NCBI GenBank assembly: GCA_012513545.1
Contig: JAAZCB010000411.1
Span: 1 to 5,071, forward strand
From: Clostridiaceae bacterium
GTDB lineage: Bacteria; Bacillota_A; Clostridia; Acetivibrionales; Acetivibrionaceae
Reading direction: 5' to 3'
Length of the DNA stretch: 5,071 bases
Below the pieces are notes generated by a model. The model made no database searches. It saw nothing but the letters and a program-made list of their open reading frames with translations, and was not told the DNA's origin. Positions 1-5,071 of the stretch are shown here, piece after piece (within the stretch, counting starts at the first letter, position 1; every line of letters starts with the position of its first letter). Both the position numbers and the translations under genes were made by a program.

Positions 1-55
1 AGACGGTGTTACTTGGCCTGCTCTTTCGTCAATTTTTGGACATTTAACACCGTCT
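1..55. repeat. Perfect 11-bp inverted repeat, arms 1-11 and 45-55
   Basis: AGACGGTGTTA at 1-11 is exactly complementary to TAACACCGTCT at 45-55, with 33 bp between the arms. The left arm starts at the first base of the window, so the true arm may be longer. The loop is long and no T-run follows, so it does not look like an intrinsic terminator. It lies inside the segment proposed to be an IS end and could be a transposase-binding repeat. Confidence 0.6.
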
Positions 56-73
56 ACCGCCGGACATTTTAGA
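1..73. mobile_element. Putative insertion-sequence end (partial, extends left of window)
   Basis: This segment carries a perfect 11-bp inverted repeat (AGACGGTGTTA at 1-11, its complement at 45-55) and a direct repeat of GGACATTT (38-45 and 62-69, 24-bp period). It is locally richer in GC (CACCGTCTACCGCCGG) than the transporter gene to its right. The minus-strand MFS reading frame stops resembling an MFS protein at about position 73. Short subterminal repeats of this kind are known from IS ends, for example in the IS21 family, but I see no transposase and cannot define the exact tip or a target duplication. The insertion is inferred; the repeats and the loss of family resemblance are seen directly. 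Confidence 0.38.
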
Positions 74-936
74 TTGGCTGTAACACCCAAGGCTATCTTC
101 CCTAATAACAGACCCGCCATACAGAATGAAACAATAGTTGCTCCAATAGAAATATCTTTTCCAATGGAATCTGCGTATGCAGGAAGATGCACGGTGAAAG
201 CATTGGTAAAACCACATGCTATGGCAAAAATGATAAGCATAAAAAAAGGAGCAGATTTAATTGCTGCTGAGAAGGATACATCAATACCCACTTCTTGGTT
301 TATATGATCAGATGTTGTTTCTTCTCTGTAACCATAGGGTTGTAAGCCTTTCTCACTGGGGTAGTTCCTAATAAACAAAGCGACCAGCGGGAATACAATA
401 ACAGCAATGATCGCCGCAAAAACCAGATAAGCTATTCTCCAGCCATAGTTTGCAATGATAAACCCACCTAATGGATTTAATACAATAGCACTTATACCTG
501 TAAAAGCTGAACAAAGACCGATATAAAATCCATTTTGCACACTAAACCAACGGTATATAAGCGTAGGCATGCAAACCATGATCAGAGGTCCAGTCAATCC
601 CAAAAACACGGCAGCAATATAAAATTGGATTATAGACGTAAAAGTAGACAGCGCACCTAAAGTTATTGCACTGATCATGACACAAATTGATAGCAGAATA
701 CGGGCATTGGTCCTGACCATAATATTCCCAATAATAGGAAAAAGCAGTGCCTGGGATATTGATGGGATCGCAAAAAAAATAGAAAACATACCGTTTGAAA
801 TGCCTAAATCTCTGGTAACTGGAATCATAAAAATACCAGCACAATTCCAAACGATTGCCGCTGGTATAGCCATTGCGCAGGATGCAACTACAATCAAAAA
901 TGCATGGTGAAAACCATGGGGGCGTATATTTTTCAA
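1..936 (-). CDS. MFS transporter, OxlT/monocarboxylate-like (3' part missing, probably interrupted)
   Basis: The minus strand is open for 312 codons from TTG at 936 to the window edge with no stop. The TTG start is supported by GAGGTAA (944-950) seven bases upstream. The protein is a chain of hydrophobic helices: TM1 at about residues 12-38, a second at about 52-70, then four more to about 190, a polar central loop, and helices from about 230. The OxlT/MCT-like signature is clear: YRWFSVQNGFYIG (128-140), NPLGGFIIANYGWRIAYL (154-171), and YPSEKGLQPYG (192-202) opening the central loop. This family exchanges or imports monocarboxylates and dicarboxylates across the cytoplasmic membrane. Family members are about 400-430 residues, so about a third is absent. 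After residue 288 the sequence (CPAVDGVKCPKIDERAGQ) is polar and unlike the expected loop after helix 8, which coincides with the repeat-rich segment at 1-73. The gene is divergent from the MmgE/PrpD gene, which suggests a shared substrate. The substrate is not determinable. Confidence 0.85.
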   Translation of the reverse strand, partial: MKNIRPHGFHHAFLIVVASCAMAIPAAIVWNCAGIFMIPVTRDLGISNGMFSIFFAIPSISQALLFPIIGNIMVRTNARILLSICVMISAITLGALSTFTSIIQFYIAAVFLGLTGPLIMVCMPTLIYRWFSVQNGFYIGLCSAFTGISAIVLNPLGGFIIANYGWRIAYLVFAAIIAVIVFPLVALFIRNYPSEKGLQPYGYREETTSDHINQEVGIDVSFSAAIKSAPFFMLIIFAIACGFTNAFTVHLPAYADSIGKDISIGATIVSFCMAGLLLGKIALGVTANLKCPAVDGVKCPKIDERAGQVTPS

Positions 937-1067: not shown

Positions 1068-1090
1068 CAACAAAGTAAAACTTTTTGTTG
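1068..1090. promoter_or_regulatory. Short dyad upstream of the -24 box (possible operator)
   Basis: CAACAAA (1068-1074) and TTTGTTG (1084-1090) form a perfect 7-bp inverted repeat with a 9-bp spacer, ending 11 bp before the -24 element of the rightward promoter. Activator sites for sigma-54 systems usually lie farther upstream, so a repressor or integration-host type site is equally possible. In A/T-rich DNA a 7-bp dyad can arise by chance. Confidence 0.25.
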
Positions 1091-1100
1091 AAAACGCATT

Positions 1101-1116
1101 TGGCATGATAATTGCA
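1101..1116 (+). promoter_or_regulatory. Sigma-54 (-24/-12) promoter for the MmgE/PrpD gene
   Basis: TGGCATGATAATTGCA matches the sigma-54 consensus TGGCACG-N4-TTGCA at all but one fixed position. The invariant GG (1102-1103) and GC (1114-1115) are exactly 10 bp apart. Transcription would start near 1127, giving a leader of about 108 bases before the preferred start codon at 1235. Sigma-54 promoters need an AAA+ activator bound upstream, and none is encoded in this window. The same core, 20 of 21 bases identical, precedes the second MFS gene. Confidence 0.8.
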
Positions 1117-1126
1117 ATAAGTAGAT

Positions 1127-1163
1127 AAAATAAGATTGCTGATTGTACTAAATCTTTTTTTTT
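1127..1163 (+). promoter_or_regulatory. A/U hairpin followed by T9 run in predicted leader (possible attenuator)
   Basis: AAGATT (1132-1137) pairs with AATCTT (1151-1156). The pairing can extend past one T-T mismatch using the A-run at 1127-1130 and part of the T9 run (1155-1163). It lies right after the predicted sigma-54 start. The stem has only one G-C pair, so a working terminator is doubtful and the T-run may be simple sequence. Confidence 0.2.
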
Positions 1164-1234
1164 CTTACGAGATACTTTCCCTTTGATTGGATCTAATGCT
1201 TTTTGTTATGAGTAATTTTGATGAGGTGAGACGG

Positions 1235-2611
1235 ATGGATATAGGTAAGGTTATTGGTGAATTTGCTTATCAACTAAATTATGATCGGTTACCTGAACAA
1301 GTAAAGATAAAATTAAAAACCTGTATTTTAAACGCCATTTGTATCGGGATTGCCGGTTACAAACTGATGCCCGCAGAAGTGGCTCGAAGAATAATCAAGG
1401 AGTATGAGGGTAAATCGGACGGCAAAAAAGCCACCTTATTTATGGGCGGCAGCAAAGTTTCAATGACCGGGGCAGTATTTGCCAATTCGACAATGTTTCA
1501 TTCACGGGCGCAGGAAGATACACTCGGCAGCGCTCACAGCGGCGTAATGGTATTGCCTGTGGTTCTTGCCATTGCTGAAAATTTTGAATGTACAGGCAAA
1601 GAGGTTATGGAGGCAGTGCTAACTAGCTACGAAGTAACGGGAGCTTTTGAGAAAGTCTTAGCAAAGTTATCTGAACCAAGGGGTTTTCGGTCGACTCCTC
1701 TTTACGTTCCAATAGCGACAGCCGCCGCTGCTGCTAAATTATTAAAACTGGATGCCGAGGGGATTGTAAACGCTGTACGTATAGCTGCATCTTTTGCGGG
1801 AGGCATAACAGAATCTTTCGCAGCTGGTACTACTGAATGGTTCTATCAGTGTGGAGCAGGTGCAAGAAATGCGGTGTTAGCTGCTTTACTGGCGGCTGAA
1901 GGAGTCAAAGGAGCAGAGTCCGCCTTTGATGGAGGTGCCGGGTTTATGCATGCATTCGCCGGAATAAAGGACGGGAGTAATCTTGAAGATGCGCTCAGCA
2001 GCCTTGGTAGAGAATTCAATATCCTCGATGTGACATTTAAGTTCTGGCCTACTTGTATGCTATGTCAAACTCCATTTACACTAACTGCAAATTTGGTTGA
2101 GGAAAAGAGAATTAAACCGGATCAAATTGAAGAAATTTGTTATTTTATGGCCCCTTCTGAAGCAGACTATCCGGGAACTTCGTATAGAGGACCTTTCACT
2201 ACAGATGTACAGACCACAATGAGTGCTGTTTTTAATATTGCCAATGCAATAAAAAGCCCAGTTCTAAGCAAGAGCCAAATGCAATGCTTCTCAGACTCGG
2301 AAGTAGAAAAAATAATTTCGCGAATCAAACTATGTAAGGATGAGCATATCCAAAGAAAATGCGGCAGGATAAAGATAACACTCTCAGATGGTACAGTATA
2401 TGAAAAGGAAATGATCATTAATCCTGCTGAATATTATAATCTTGGTTGGGATGAAAACATACAAAAAATGTACATTGTTCACAAAGAAGTAGGTATTTCG
2501 GAGAATATAACTGAACAACTCATTTCCGCCGTTATGGACTTGGAAAATGTTCAGAATATATCAAAGCTGATAAGTATTATTCAACGTCCACAGGATAAAT
2601 TAAGTAAATAG
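1235..2611 (+). CDS. MmgE/PrpD family protein (divergent active site)
   Basis: 458 residues, full length for the MmgE/PrpD family, which includes 2-methylcitrate dehydratase and cis-aconitate decarboxylase. The ATG at 1235 is preferred because GAGGTGA (1223-1229) sits five bases upstream; the frame stays open to TTG 1187 (474 aa), but those starts lack a Shine-Dalgarno site. Using the 458-aa numbering, the N-terminal helical domain begins MDIGKVIGEFAYQLNY. Family landmarks follow: FHSRAQEDTLGSAHSG (88-103, keeping Asp95 and His101), SYEVTGAFEK (131-140), the helix GARNAVLAALLAAEG (209-223), GFMHAFAG (236-243), FKFWPTC (268-274) and a C-terminal lid domain with LSDGTVYEKE (383-392). Several residues important in characterised relatives are changed: the usual GFHPT His is Arg (GFRST, 150-154), the usual LHPG is QCG (205-207), and the usual C-x(3)-H His is Gln278. 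The protein is cytoplasmic and is driven by the sigma-54 promoter at 1101. A hydro-lyase, decarboxylase or isomerase acting on a di- or tricarboxylate is inferred from the family only. Confidence 0.88.
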   Translation: MDIGKVIGEFAYQLNYDRLPEQVKIKLKTCILNAICIGIAGYKLMPAEVARRIIKEYEGKSDGKKATLFMGGSKVSMTGAVFANSTMFHSRAQEDTLGSAHSGVMVLPVVLAIAENFECTGKEVMEAVLTSYEVTGAFEKVLAKLSEPRGFRSTPLYVPIATAAAAAKLLKLDAEGIVNAVRIAASFAGGITESFAAGTTEWFYQCGAGARNAVLAALLAAEGVKGAESAFDGGAGFMHAFAGIKDGSNLEDALSSLGREFNILDVTFKFWPTCMLCQTPFTLTANLVEEKRIKPDQIEEICYFMAPSEADYPGTSYRGPFTTDVQTTMSAVFNIANAIKSPVLSKSQMQCFSDSEVEKIISRIKLCKDEHIQRKCGRIKITLSDGTVYEKEMIINPAEYYNLGWDENIQKMYIVHKEVGISENITEQLISAVMDLENVQNISKLISIIQRPQDKLSK

Positions 2612-2666
2612 TATCAGCTCCATTCGCCGCCACAAAAGCAGCAAAATAGCTAGTTTTTATCAAAGT

Positions 2667-2682
2667 TTGGCATGGCTTTTGC
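2667..2682 (+). promoter_or_regulatory. Sigma-54 (-24/-12) promoter upstream of the zinc-ribbon genes
   Basis: TTGGCATGGCTTTTGC followed by G has GG (2669-2670) and GC (2681-2682) exactly 10 bp apart and matches TGGCACG-N4-TTGCW with two changes. The predicted start is near 2694, which leaves about 134 bases before the gene at 2828. The leader contains a 7-bp hairpin and a 15-codon ORF. No strong terminator separates this site from the MmgE/PrpD stop at 2611, so read-through from the upstream gene is also possible. Confidence 0.65.
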
Positions 2683-2716
2683 GCATAATATGTGTATACT
2701 CATAATTATAATAAAT

Positions 2717-2749
2717 TTTGCATGCTATTTTACGACTGATTAATGCAAA
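2717..2749 (+). repeat. 7-bp inverted repeat in the leader, next to a GGAGGG site
   Basis: TTTGCAT (2717-2723) and ATGCAAA (2743-2749) are perfectly complementary with a 19-base loop. The right arm ends one base before GGAGGG (2751-2756), so a folded RNA could affect ribosome access there. It could also be a protein-binding dyad or chance. Confidence 0.25.
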
Positions 2750-2768
2750 TGGAGGGACAAGAGTATTA

Positions 2769-2816
2769 TTGAAAGCAGAATATATAAAGGGATTACGGGA
2801 TAAACCTGACATATAA
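2769..2816 (+). CDS. 15-codon ORF (leader peptide or gene remnant)
   Basis: TTG at 2769 opens a frame encoding MKAEYIKGLRDKPDI, ending in TAA at 2814-2816, which overlaps the ribosome binding site of the next gene. A GGAGGG (2751-2756) lies 12 bases upstream, rather far but strong. The peptide resembles, from memory, the first residues (xxEYIxSLRxxKPxVY) of the 4-hydroxybutyryl-CoA dehydratase / 4-hydroxyphenylacetate hydroxylase family. It could therefore be the relic of a deleted enzyme gene, or a coincidence. If translated, its stop would deliver ribosomes to the zinc-ribbon gene at 2828. Confidence 0.25.
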   Translation: MKAEYIKGLRDKPDI

Positions 2817-2827
2817 GGAGGAATAAT

Positions 2828-3112
2828 ATGGAGCAGCCTTATATTTTTATAATCATAGTTTTAATAATATGTGCAGTTTATATCGTTATACGAGGTAAAC
2901 AGAATGCTGATGCAAAAGCGTTTCTTACAAATATAAAAGAACAAACTGAAAATGAGTTCAAGTGTCCTAACTGTAATTCAAAGCAACTCGTATCAAGTAC
3001 TAGAGGGTGGTATTGGAAGACCGGATTGCGTGGCAGTGACCAAATAATCATTACCTGTTTACATTGTGGGGATAAATGGGAACCCGTATTTAAATCACAA
3101 AACAAAGATTAG
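2828..3112 (+). CDS. Small membrane-anchored zinc-ribbon protein (first of a tandem pair)
   Basis: 94 residues with a strong AAGGAGG (2815-2821) six bases before the ATG. Residues 5-21 form one hydrophobic helix followed by R22 and K24, which predicts that the C-terminal part faces the cytoplasm. A zinc ribbon follows: C46-P-N-C49 and C77-L-H-C80-G-x-x-W84, with RGWYWKTGLRG (59-69) between. That pattern of RG plus aromatics, then CxxCGxxW, recurs in small bacterial zinc-ribbon proteins. The four cysteines would bind one structural zinc. The protein aligns with the product of the gene at 3226 in both architecture and ribbon residues, so the two are paralogs. Such ribbons can bind nucleic acid or protein partners, but nothing here identifies one, and I do not recognise a named family. 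Expression is probably from the sigma-54 promoter at 2667. Confidence 0.8.
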   Translation: MEQPYIFIIIVLIICAVYIVIRGKQNADAKAFLTNIKEQTENEFKCPNCNSKQLVSSTRGWYWKTGLRGSDQIIITCLHCGDKWEPVFKSQNKD

Positions 3113-3225
3113 CTTTATTAAAAATCAGCATTAATAGTTCCTCTATAATGGATATTTAAGCACTTGGCAAGCACCTGTGCAATATTCAATTTATATTTTT
3201 GAAATAAGACAAATGGAGGAGAAAA

Positions 3226-3471
3226 ATGGATTTAATTAAAATACTATTAATAGTGATAGCAGCTGTTATTGCGGTGACATTCAAGATATATATCAATAGA
3301 ATGAGGAAAGAGAAGGTTGAGTTGTATCTTTCGAAAATAAGTTGTTCTGCTTGTGGGTCTAATCAACTTTATATAGATGCTCGCATTATGCATAATTTTT
3401 TTAAGGGCTTACCGCTCACTATTTCCTGTTTTGAATGCGGGAATACATGGCAGGAGAAAACAGATAAATAA
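3226..3471 (+). CDS. Small membrane-anchored zinc-ribbon protein (second of a tandem pair)
   Basis: 81 residues with GGAGGAG (3215-3221) four bases before the ATG. Residues 3-19 form a hydrophobic helix, and a basic stretch (K20 through R25, R27, K28, K30) suggests the remainder is cytoplasmic. The ribbon is C40-S-A-C43 and C68-F-E-C71-G-x-x-W75. It shares with the upstream paralog the pattern C-x2-C-x-S-x-QL, the closing CxxCGxxW and an N-terminal helix at the same place. The loop between the cysteine pairs is three residues shorter (24 against 27). It lies 113 bp downstream of the first gene on the same strand, and no strong terminator separates them. Function is unknown; it may have diverged to pair with, or replace, its neighbour. 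Confidence 0.8.
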   Translation: MDLIKILLIVIAAVIAVTFKIYINRMRKEKVELYLSKISCSACGSNQLYIDARIMHNFFKGLPLTISCFECGNTWQEKTDK

Positions 3472-3513
3472 AGATCTAATGATGTTTTATGAATAAGTAT
3501 GAAAATATTGAGA

Positions 3514-3550
3514 TGGGGCAGTTAGCTGATAAAGCAAGCTGTCCTCTTTA
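3514..3550 (+). terminator. Weak hairpin after the zinc-ribbon pair (doubtful terminator)
   Basis: GGGGCAG can pair with CTGTCCT using two G-T wobbles, and a small inner GCT/AGC stem is possible in the loop. It is followed by CTTTAAATTT, not a clean T-run. Its position between the second zinc-ribbon gene and the next sigma-54 promoter suits a terminator, but the structure is weak. Confidence 0.25.
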
Positions 3551-3596
3551 AATTTATAATAACATTCAAAAGTTTCGACAAAAGGTAAGCTATTAT

Positions 3597-3612
3597 TTGG
3601 CATAATAATTGC
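3597..3612 (+). promoter_or_regulatory. Sigma-54 (-24/-12) promoter for the second MFS gene
   Basis: TTGGCATAATAATTGC has GG (3599-3600) and GC (3611-3612) exactly 10 bp apart and continues into AAT, giving TTGCA. Two positions differ from TGGCACG-N4-TTGCA. The predicted start is near 3624, about 61 bases before the ATG at 3685. The block 3595-3615 differs at one base from 1098-1118 before the MmgE/PrpD gene. CAAAAG occurs twice, 12 bp apart, just upstream (3567-3572, 3579-3584). Confidence 0.75.
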
Positions 3613-3684
3613 AATTTATCAATTACAAAATAAAATGGAAATGCATGGAATTTGAAATATATCAACTTTTGATAGGATCATAAC

Positions 3685-4710
3685 ATGAAAAAAGAAAGTT
3701 TATGGACTAAGGATTTTATTACCATATTCACAATAAATTTTTTTGTTGCAATAGTATTTAATCTATTGATCGTTACCATCGCTTCATTTGCTATAGAAGT
3801 ATTTAATTCATCAGCAGGGGTAGCGGGTTTCGCAGCAAGTATTTTTGTTATTGGGGCTTTAATTGGCAGACTGGTAGCTGGGCCAATAATTGGTACAGAA
3901 GGTAAAAAGGTTATGATCATTGGCTTATTTATCAATATGGTTACTATCGTACTTTATTTGATCATAACTAATTTACCTTTATTGCTCATCAACAGATTGA
4001 TACATGGTTTTGCTTTTGGAATGGCAACTACAGCTACGGCAACAATGATTGCGCAGATACTTCCTTCCAGCAGACGTGGGGAAGGGATTGGCTACTATTC
4101 TTTGAATGTAACATTGGGTCAAGCAATAGGTCCCTTCTTAGGAATTCTTTTAAGCCATTATACAAGTTTTACTGTTATATTTGTTTGTGCTGCCATATTA
4201 GCTGCCATTAGTCTGGCGCTATCTTTTACTGTTATTCAACCGGTTCAAACAGTAGTCGATCCAATTGAAAAAAATACTGCAAAAAAGTTCCAGCTATCAA
4301 ATTTTATTGAATTTACGGCGATCCCAATTGCGATCGTTTCATTGGTCGTTGGCATCGGTTATTCAGTTGTAGGGCCTTTTTTGTCAGTCTATGCTGAGGA
4401 GATCAATTTAGTTAAAGCTGCCAGCTTCTTTTTCCCTGTATACGCTATTGCGATCTTGCTCTCCAGGCCTTATTCCGGGCGATTACTTGATACTAAAGGT
4501 GCGAATTCTGTGATATATCCTTCCCTTTTAATTTTCGCAGCCGGCATACTTGTGTATAGTCAGGCCAGTAATGCAATTATTTTATTATTAGCCGCTGTTT
4601 TAATTGGTTTAGGTTACGGCAACTTTCATTCCTGTGCTCAGGCAATAGCAATAAAGGGATCGCAACCCTACAGATTTGGATCAGCAATGGCTACTTTTTC
4701 TTTTTTATGA
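3685..4710 (+). CDS. MFS transporter, DHA1-like (main part; frameshifted near the C-terminus)
   Basis: 341 codons to a TGA at 4708-4710. The product begins MKKESLWTKDF, a common opening of Bacillota DHA1-type transporters. It contains helices 1-10 of a 12-helix MFS protein. A motif-A-like stretch GRLVAGPIIGTEGKKVMIIG (62-81) follows helix 2, and a motif-C-like GQAIGPFLG (about 145-153) marks helix 5, as in proton-coupled efflux carriers. The second half starts after the loop at about 185-210. The frame breaks after FGSAMATF; the missing helices 11-12 continue in the +1 frame (4691-4876). The intact protein would be about 397 residues, normal for the family. The ribosome site is weak (AGGAT, 3674-3678). 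Expression is expected from the sigma-54 promoter at 3597. Whether it exports a drug, sugar or pathway metabolite cannot be read from the sequence. The truncated form is probably inactive. Confidence 0.82.
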   Translation: MKKESLWTKDFITIFTINFFVAIVFNLLIVTIASFAIEVFNSSAGVAGFAASIFVIGALIGRLVAGPIIGTEGKKVMIIGLFINMVTIVLYLIITNLPLLLINRLIHGFAFGMATTATATMIAQILPSSRRGEGIGYYSLNVTLGQAIGPFLGILLSHYTSFTVIFVCAAILAAISLALSFTVIQPVQTVVDPIEKNTAKKFQLSNFIEFTAIPIAIVSLVVGIGYSVVGPFLSVYAEEINLVKAASFFFPVYAIAILLSRPYSGRLLDTKGANSVIYPSLLIFAAGILVYSQASNAIILLLAAVLIGLGYGNFHSCAQAIAIKGSQPYRFGSAMATFSFL

Positions 4711-4876
4711 ATCAGGATACGGCATGGGTCCATATTTATTTGGATCACTCATTCCATACATAGGATGGCGTTATTTATATTTGATAGTGACCATGGTTAT
4801 AATCGCAAATATTGGTTTTTACTACTTTTTATATGGAAAAAAGCAAAAACAAAGTAATCTCAGCGCAACAACGTAA
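4691..4876 (+). pseudogene. C-terminal part of the same MFS transporter, in the +1 frame
   Basis: This frame reads YESGYGMGPYLFGSLIPYIG and then WRYLYLIVTMVIIANIGFYY before a lysine-rich tail ending at TAA 4874-4876. These are the expected helices 11 and 12 of the transporter: the xxGxGxGPYxxG motif is a standard feature of helix 11 in this family. An ATG at 4676 is in this frame but has no ribosome site and lies inside the upstream frame, so an independent gene is unlikely. Removing one T, or adding two, in T5-C-T6 (4695-4706) rejoins the frames. The cause may be mutation, a sequencing error or ribosomal slippage. Confidence 0.75.
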
Positions 4877-4952
4877 TAATAAAGCCATTATAGAAAAGAG
4901 CCTATCATAACACACTGATGCTGGTACGTTTAATTTTATGGCCTATTCCCTA

Positions 4953-4968
4953 TGGTATGTTTCTTGCA
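4953..4968 (+). promoter_or_regulatory. Sigma-54 (-24/-12) promoter for the gene at 5018
   Basis: TGGTATGTTTCTTGCA has GG (4954-4955) and GC (4966-4967) exactly 10 bp apart. It differs from TGGCACG-N4-TTGCA at two positions in the -24 box, and the -12 box is perfect. The start would be near 4979, about 39 bases before the ATG at 5018, a normal leader. The remaining DNA between 4877 and 5017 shows no gene and no clear terminator. Confidence 0.65.
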
Positions 4969-5017: not shown

Positions 5018-5071
5018 ATGAGATTGCTGAGTATTCCGGAGCATTTTACACCGCCTGTCCGGTGGCAGGAA
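5018..5071 (+). CDS. Start of an unidentified gene (18 codons, runs off the window)
   Basis: ATG at 5018 follows a purine-rich AGGGAGGAAAGG (5003-5014), an excellent ribosome binding region, and a sigma-54 type promoter at 4953. The visible product is MRLLSIPEHFTPPVRWQE. There is no signal peptide or membrane helix in these residues, so a soluble protein is likely. I do not recognise the family from this short start. Its promoter type suggests that it belongs to the same regulon as the MmgE/PrpD and MFS genes. Confidence 0.6.
   Translation, partial: MRLLSIPEHFTPPVRWQE

What the first reader, a model, noticed from the sequence alone, without database searches (positions are those of the whole stretch)
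1101..4968. Four sigma-54 type promoters in under 4 kb, each ahead of a different gene
Sites at 1101, 2667, 3597 and 4953 all have the invariant GG-N10-GC spacing and one or two differences from TGGCACG-N4-TTGCW. All point right and lie in intergenic DNA before a gene with a ribosome site. Four independent sigma-54 units in one short locus suggests a dedicated regulon under one AAA+ activator encoded nearby, rather than a single operon. It ties the unknown zinc-ribbon proteins to an organic-acid pathway.
Basis: partly seen in the sequence, partly recalled or inferred. Interest (0 to 1): 0.7.

Follow-up and report, generated by a model that had tools for sequence, protein, structure and literature searches.

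The report
Clustered sigma-54 promoters in clostridial contig
A short piece of DNA from an uncultured, probably clostridial bacterium carries three convincing and one weaker promoter of a special, activator-dependent type in front of an enzyme gene, a small zinc-binding protein gene, a transporter gene and a cut-off gene; such clusters are already known in these bacteria, so this is a sound but fairly ordinary find.

Summary
Four such sites were reached in 0 of 1000 model sequences. Three have one difference each from the published Clostridiales consensus TTGGCATN5TTGCT; 0 of 300 model sequences held three that good. The fourth has three differences and is weaker. Five genes follow, not four: the second zinc-ribbon gene has only a GG-N11-GC near-site.

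Clustering in a catabolic-type locus (MmgE/PrpD-like enzyme, MFS transporters) is what clostridial sigma-54 regulons look like. One shared, nearby activator is not shown: the window is a whole 5071-base contig, no activator was seen in it, no genome is held, and no shared upstream site was found. The organic-acid link is loose: the enzyme has the MmgE/PrpD fold but belongs to a branch that lacks several known substrate-binding residues. Verdict: probably a working sigma-54 cluster, a new member of a known kind. The unusual parts are the two near-orphan zinc-ribbon proteins and the enzyme branch.

The parts
1101..1116 (+). sigma-54 type promoter, site 1 (TGG at 1101, GC at 1114-1115), expected transcript start about 1127
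   Evidence: one difference from TTGGCATN5TTGCT
1235..2611 (+). MmgE/PrpD-like enzyme, 458 aa, downstream of site 1
   Evidence: Pfam MmgE_PrpD_N 7.7e-48; model with MmgE/PrpD fold
2668..2683 (+). sigma-54 type promoter, site 2, expected transcript start about 2694
   Evidence: one difference from TTGGCATN5TTGCT
2828..3112 (+). ZnR1: 94-aa protein with N-terminal hydrophobic segment and CxxC...CxxCG zinc ribbon
   Evidence: only relative found P0121 (91%)
3165..3181 (+). near-site before ZnR2 with GG-N11-GC (one base too long), probably not a working sigma-54 promoter
3226..3471 (+). ZnR2: 81-aa relative of ZnR1
   Evidence: (30% over 53 residues, E 3e-05 for the single comparison)
3598..3613 (+). 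sigma-54 type promoter, site 3, expected transcript start about 3624
   Evidence: one difference from TTGGCATN5TTGCT
3685..4876 (+). MFS transporter (MFS2), in two frames: 3685-4710 and 4676-4876; the frame is broken near 4700
4953..4968 (+). weaker sigma-54 type promoter, site 4, expected transcript start about 4979
   Evidence: three differences from TTGGCATN5TTGCT
5019..5071 (+). start of a further gene behind a strong ribosome site, cut by the end of the contig; not identified
   Evidence: read
1..936 (-). divergent MFS transporter (MFS1), cut by the contig start; no sigma-54 site upstream on its strand

Best explanation
This is a catabolic-type locus of an uncultured, probably clostridial bacterium in which at least three, probably four, transcripts start at sigma-54 promoters. 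Shown: the -24/-12 sites, their spacing, strand and place before genes. Inferred: RNA polymerase with SigL/RpoN sits at these promoters as a closed complex and is opened by one or more AAA+ activators encoded outside the contig, most likely of the PAS-type one-component kind that is commonest in Clostridiales, sensing a substrate or product of the pathway. The MmgE/PrpD-like enzyme then works on a carboxylic acid brought in by the MFS transporter, and the small membrane-anchored zinc-ribbon proteins are accessory. That one activator serves all four promoters is possible (I put it near 0.45) but not shown.
For: Sites and chance levels. Sites 1-3 carry the leading T and the T after TGGCA that the Clostridiales consensus has (PMC6615313; abstract and outline, passages, sections 5-7 read). 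In that paper most target operons lie beside their activator gene, 93 of 263 activators control two to six operons, and 357 of 387 one-component activators have PAS domains. MFS permeases (COG0477) are among the sigma-54 targets named for Bacillota in PMC12316311 (passages only). Clostridial origin: P0121, 91% identical to ZnR1, is from a MAG named Clostridiaceae bacterium, and a 53% relative of the enzyme is from Ihubacter massiliensis. Enzyme family and fold.
Against: No rpoN or activator could be sought, as no genome is held. No shared upstream activator site was found. Site 4 is weak. With two differences allowed from TGGCAYGN4TTGCW, four unrelated G+C-rich loci (70,088 bases) hold 25 matches, so such looser matches prove little. 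MFS2 has a broken frame and the enzyme has glycine at position 71, where 40 of 41 proteins of the two nearest groups have aspartate (the other has a gap), so this copy may carry sequencing errors or be decaying. The C-terminal MmgE/PrpD profile scores below its cut-off (25.6 against 32.1). Conservation of the promoters in relatives could not be tested: the one genome scan gave four loci, Arthrobacter-type and Betaproteobacteria, 29-34% identical in the enzyme.
Confidence: 0.75

Rival explanations
1. The sites are real sigma-54 promoters but serve two or more different activators; the locus is a neighbourhood in a genome rich in activators, not one regulon. (This is one of the two forms left open by the best explanation, so the two confidences overlap.)
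For: 170 of 263 clostridial activators control one operon only. Two Clostridia are reported with 67 and 59 activators (PMC12316311, passages). No upstream motif shared by the four promoters was found; only site 1 has an exact dyad with 7-base arms, CAACAAA-N9-TTTGTTG at 1068-1090.
Against: Four promoters within 4 kb ahead of genes that fit one pathway (enzyme, transporter) is more simply one regulon; the motif search is weak with four short regions and had no positive control.
Confidence: 0.35
2. One or two of the sites are true and the rest are chance matches, or they are internal promoters of one read-through operon.
For: Site 4 is not significant with the published consensus; none of the four terminator-like sites found lies in a gap between genes.
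Against: Sites 1-3 are significant as a set (0 of 300), and all four sit in gaps of 142-298 bases ahead of genes.
Confidence: 0.2
3. The sites are chance matches in AT-rich intergenic DNA and sigma-54 plays no part.
For: A loose scan finds many matches (11 against 6.2 expected); rpoN has not been seen.
Against: Strict scans are far above chance; four other loci (70,088 bases, higher G+C) hold 2 sites with at most one difference from TGGCAYGN4TTGCW, against 4 in this 5071-base contig.
Confidence: 0.05

Closest known systems
Reconstructed sigma-54 regulons of Clostridiales (e.g. DioR, AguQ and PrdR groups; PMC6615313, Table 1)
   Same: Several sigma-54-controlled operons of one catabolic pathway per activator; same promoter letters.
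   Different: MmgE, PrpD and methylcitrate do not occur in the main text, and Table 1 names no zinc-ribbon gene, though it has unnamed 'hyp' genes; supplementary tables were not seen. Activator and activator sites are not known here.
MmgE/PrpD enzymes: iminodisuccinate epimerase (2hp0/2hp3), cis-aconitate decarboxylase, 2-methylcitrate dehydratase, methylsuccinate isomerase (PMC12290011, passages)
   Same: Fold (TM by model length 0.84 to 2hp3, 0.85 to 7e9d); H89, the catalytic histidine (H101) and a lysine (K269) are kept.
   Different: IDS epimerase D88, H150 and K198 are A92, R152 and W202 here, and Y145 is E147.
Small zinc-ribbon proteins (several Pfam zinc-ribbon families)
   Same: CxxC...CxxCG pattern.
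   Different: No family passes its cut-off. A search with ZnR1 found one protein, P0121; a search with the alignment of ZnR2, ZnR1 and P0121 found only P0121 and ZnR2 itself, among about 5.8 billion proteins and at the limited sensitivity of that tool.

Membership tests
sigma-54 promoter | GG-N10-GC with TGGCAY and TTGC boxes | tested here: met
   4 of 4 sites have GG-N10-GC and TTGC; sites 1-3 have TGGCAT, site 4 has TGGTAT
sigma-54 promoter | found more often than chance, in intergenic DNA | tested here: met
   site 4 alone inconclusive
sigma-54 promoter | rpoN/sigL in the genome | not testable with these tools
   no genome held
sigma-54 regulon under one activator | activator with GAFTGA and HTH close by | not testable with these tools
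   window is the whole contig; none of six frames scanned is an AAA+ protein; what lies outside cannot be seen
sigma-54 regulon under one activator | shared upstream activator site, mostly at 100-250 bases | tested here: inconclusive
   none found: no shared dyad, no TGT-N10-12-ACA, no shared palindrome above shuffles; low power with four regions and no positive control
MmgE/PrpD superfamily | MmgE_PrpD_N profile and fold | tested here: met
   163.3 bits against cut-off 32.1 (C-terminal profile 25.6 against 32.1, below its cut-off); fold
2-methylcitrate dehydratase PrpD | NCBIfam equivalog cut-off | tested here: not met
   TIGR02330 16.9 bits against 458; NF042438 32.5 against 950; NF006943 15.8 against 575
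MmgE/PrpD enzymes of known activity | the six residues H85, D88, H99, H150, K198, K266 (IDS epimerase numbering, PMC12290011) | tested here: not met
   3 of 6 kept (H89, H101, K269); 3 changed (A92, R152, W202) by the profile alignment; counts among relatives

The most novel reading that the evidence does not exclude
A sigma-54 regulon, not yet described, that couples a new branch of MmgE/PrpD chemistry to a pair of near-orphan, membrane-anchored zinc-ribbon proteins that act as sensors or transporter partners for its substrate, all under one unknown activator.
Probability: 0.15. Interest if true: 0.5.

Novelty: new member of a known kind. Interest (0 to 1): 0.33.

Why it matters
If true, it adds an MmgE/PrpD-type pathway to the sigma-54-controlled catabolism of Clostridia and gives a handle, through shared regulation, on two zinc-ribbon proteins with almost no known relatives and on an enzyme branch whose altered active site points to an untested substrate.

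Tried and rejected
Loose scan with three mismatches: hardly above chance, so stricter tests were used. Search for activator sites: gapped dyads (besides the exact dyad before site 1, dyads with 8-base arms and one mismatch at 2464 before site 2 and 4823 before site 4, of other sequence; none before site 3; no pair shared in sequence and spacing); TGT-N10-12-ACA and related pairs (none in that orientation; in the opposite one ACAA-N11-TTGT at 1070 and ACAA-N10-TTGT at 2461, before sites 1 and 2 only); palindromic Gibbs search against 25 shuffled sets per width (width 14 score 37.7, shuffles mean 36.2, largest 38.5; width 16 38.2, mean 39.2; width 18 43.6, mean 42.8, largest 47.6; the real set had more restarts than the shuffles, which favours it). 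Nothing shared by all four.

Local alignment of five leader regions, ten pairs, against 300 letter shuffles each: site 1 with site 3 (3 of 300 reach the score; its core is the promoter, 20 of 21 bases) and the ZnR2 leader with site 3 (8 of 300) are the lowest; the other eight range from 28 to 267 of 300; no correction for ten pairs. That the ZnR2 leader is a copy of the ZnR1 leader was considered and not supported (67 of 300).

Relatives of the locus: one scan of genome contigs, 37 stretches matched, four loci, none clostridial; viral contigs, 27 stretches, none a relative; plasmids by DNA none, by protein 79 records, all under 60% identity (15 listed, 26-36%). Neighbours (E 1e-5): in L001 five frames scanned, an MFS gene lies divergently next to the enzyme gene; in L003 three frames scanned, no transporter, others near the gene not scanned. 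L002 and L004 were not looked at. Rfam: no match at gathering scores. Solved structures for ZnR2: best E 0.065; ZnR1 was not searched.

Papers (open-licence library): sigma-54 + MmgE + Clostridia 0 papers; MmgE + sigma54 1 paper, on Paraburkholderia (listing only); sigma54 + propionate + PrpR + Clostridium 2 papers, one of them PMC6615313. Subscription papers and supplements were not searched.

A caution on controls: the Y and the final W of the patterns were chosen after the sites were seen, so the Fisher value (8.7e-05) is not independent; the test with the published letters is. The four control loci have G+C 0.59-0.65 against 0.37 here, and hold 2 matches with one difference and 25 with two (1, 12, 5 and 7).
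Full report
What the window is. It is a whole metagenome contig: the protein collection lists ZnR2, without other source, on one contig of 5071 bases, and no genome is held for it. G+C is 0.37. The closest protein found for ZnR1, 91% identical, is from a MAG named Clostridiaceae bacterium; a 53% relative of the enzyme is from Ihubacter massiliensis. An uncultured member of Clostridia is the likeliest source; this is an inference from two proteins.

The promoters. Four sites on the + strand have GG-N10-GC and one or two differences from TGGCACGN4TTGCW: 1101, 2668, 3598, 4953. The published Clostridiales consensus is TTGGCATN5TTGCT (PMC6615313). Sites 1, 2 and 3 differ from it in one letter, the last; site 4 in three (letters). 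Model sequences of the same composition hold three sites that good in 0 of 300 cases, and four sites by the first pattern in 0 of 1000. All four lie in gaps between genes, which make up 982 of the 5071 bases on that strand. Expected transcript starts give leaders of 108, 134, 61 and 40 bases to the start codons at 1235, 2828, 3685 and 5019. Sites 1 and 3 share 20 of 21 bases around the promoter. The divergent MFS gene has no such site upstream on its strand.

What does not fit neatly. The second zinc-ribbon gene (3226) has only TTGGCA...TGCA with GG-N11-GC at 3165. A match of that kind, with the normal spacing or one base more or less, arises in 43 of 20000 random stretches of that length, so it may be a decayed promoter; but sigma-54 is strict on spacing (recalled), and ZnR2 may simply be read through from ZnR1, since none of the terminator-like sites found lies in a gap. 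Site 4 alone is not significant with the clostridial consensus: 78 of 300 model sequences reach the 11 matches found at three differences.

One activator or several. None of the six frames scanned is an AAA+ protein. Three searches for a shared site upstream found nothing common to the four; they have little power and no positive control. Only site 1 has an exact dyad with 7-base arms (1068-1090), and it lies 10 bases before the promoter, nearer than the 100-250 bases that most clostridial sites keep. In that survey 170 of 263 activators control one operon and 93 control two to six, so both readings stand. The survey counts one to 28 sigma-54 regulons per genome; in a genome of a few million bases (assumed) four promoters within 4 kb are very unlikely to fall together by accident, whichever activators serve them. 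This last step is my estimate, not a computed value.

The enzyme. It matches MmgE_PrpD_N (163.3 bits, cut-off 32.1) and, below the cut-off, MmgE_PrpD_C (25.6 against 32.1). It falls far below the cut-offs for 2-methylcitrate dehydratase. Its model (mean pLDDT 91.3; made for P0001, which differs from the window in one residue) resembles IRG1/cis-aconitate decarboxylase and iminodisuccinate epimerase (TM 0.82-0.85 by model length). Aligned to iminodisuccinate epimerase, whose residues are named in PMC12290011 (passages), it keeps H89, H101 and K269 but has A92, R152 and W202 for D88, H150 and K198. Of the 243 proteins found, 120 were listed and aligned. R152 is present in 48 of the 48 nearest (P0001-P0048, P0001 being the window's own near-identical representative), W202 in 47 of 48 and A92 in 46 of 48; among the 72 more distant ones 48 have H, 52 have K and 49 have D (15 more E) at these places. 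I read this as a distinct branch without a characterised member among those seen, so an acid substrate is likely but its nature is open. The model is least certain at residues 194-197, next to W202.

The zinc-ribbon proteins. Both have a hydrophobic N-terminus (read from the sequence) and CxxC...CxxCG..W. They are 30% identical over 53 residues, E 3e-05 for the single comparison, 26% in the alignment. No family passes its cut-off. The only relative found outside the window is P0121. Placing ZnR1 behind a good sigma-54 site is the best clue to its use: it is probably made when the pathway is switched on.

Verdict.

Noticed in passing
window 3685-4710 and 4676-4876: The frame of the MFS2 gene is broken near 4700 in a T-rich stretch and goes on in another frame; a sequencing error or a decaying gene.
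   Followed up: partly
window 1445-1447 (enzyme residue 71): The window codes for glycine where its otherwise identical database representative P0001 has aspartate, as do 40 of 41 proteins of the two nearest groups (one gap; 3 of the next 7).
   Followed up: partly
window 2769-2816: A 15-codon reading frame with a TTG start that ends directly before the ribosome site of ZnR1 (read); could be a leader peptide or chance.
   Followed up: no
window 1068-1090: Inverted repeat CAACAAA-N9-TTTGTTG ten bases before promoter 1, a possible regulator site.
   Followed up: partly
L001 8155-9612 and 9947-11374: In a Pseudarthrobacter relative an MFS transporter gene lies divergently next to the related enzyme gene, with aldehyde and alcohol dehydrogenase genes beyond it and a transposase gene on the other side.
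   Followed up: partly
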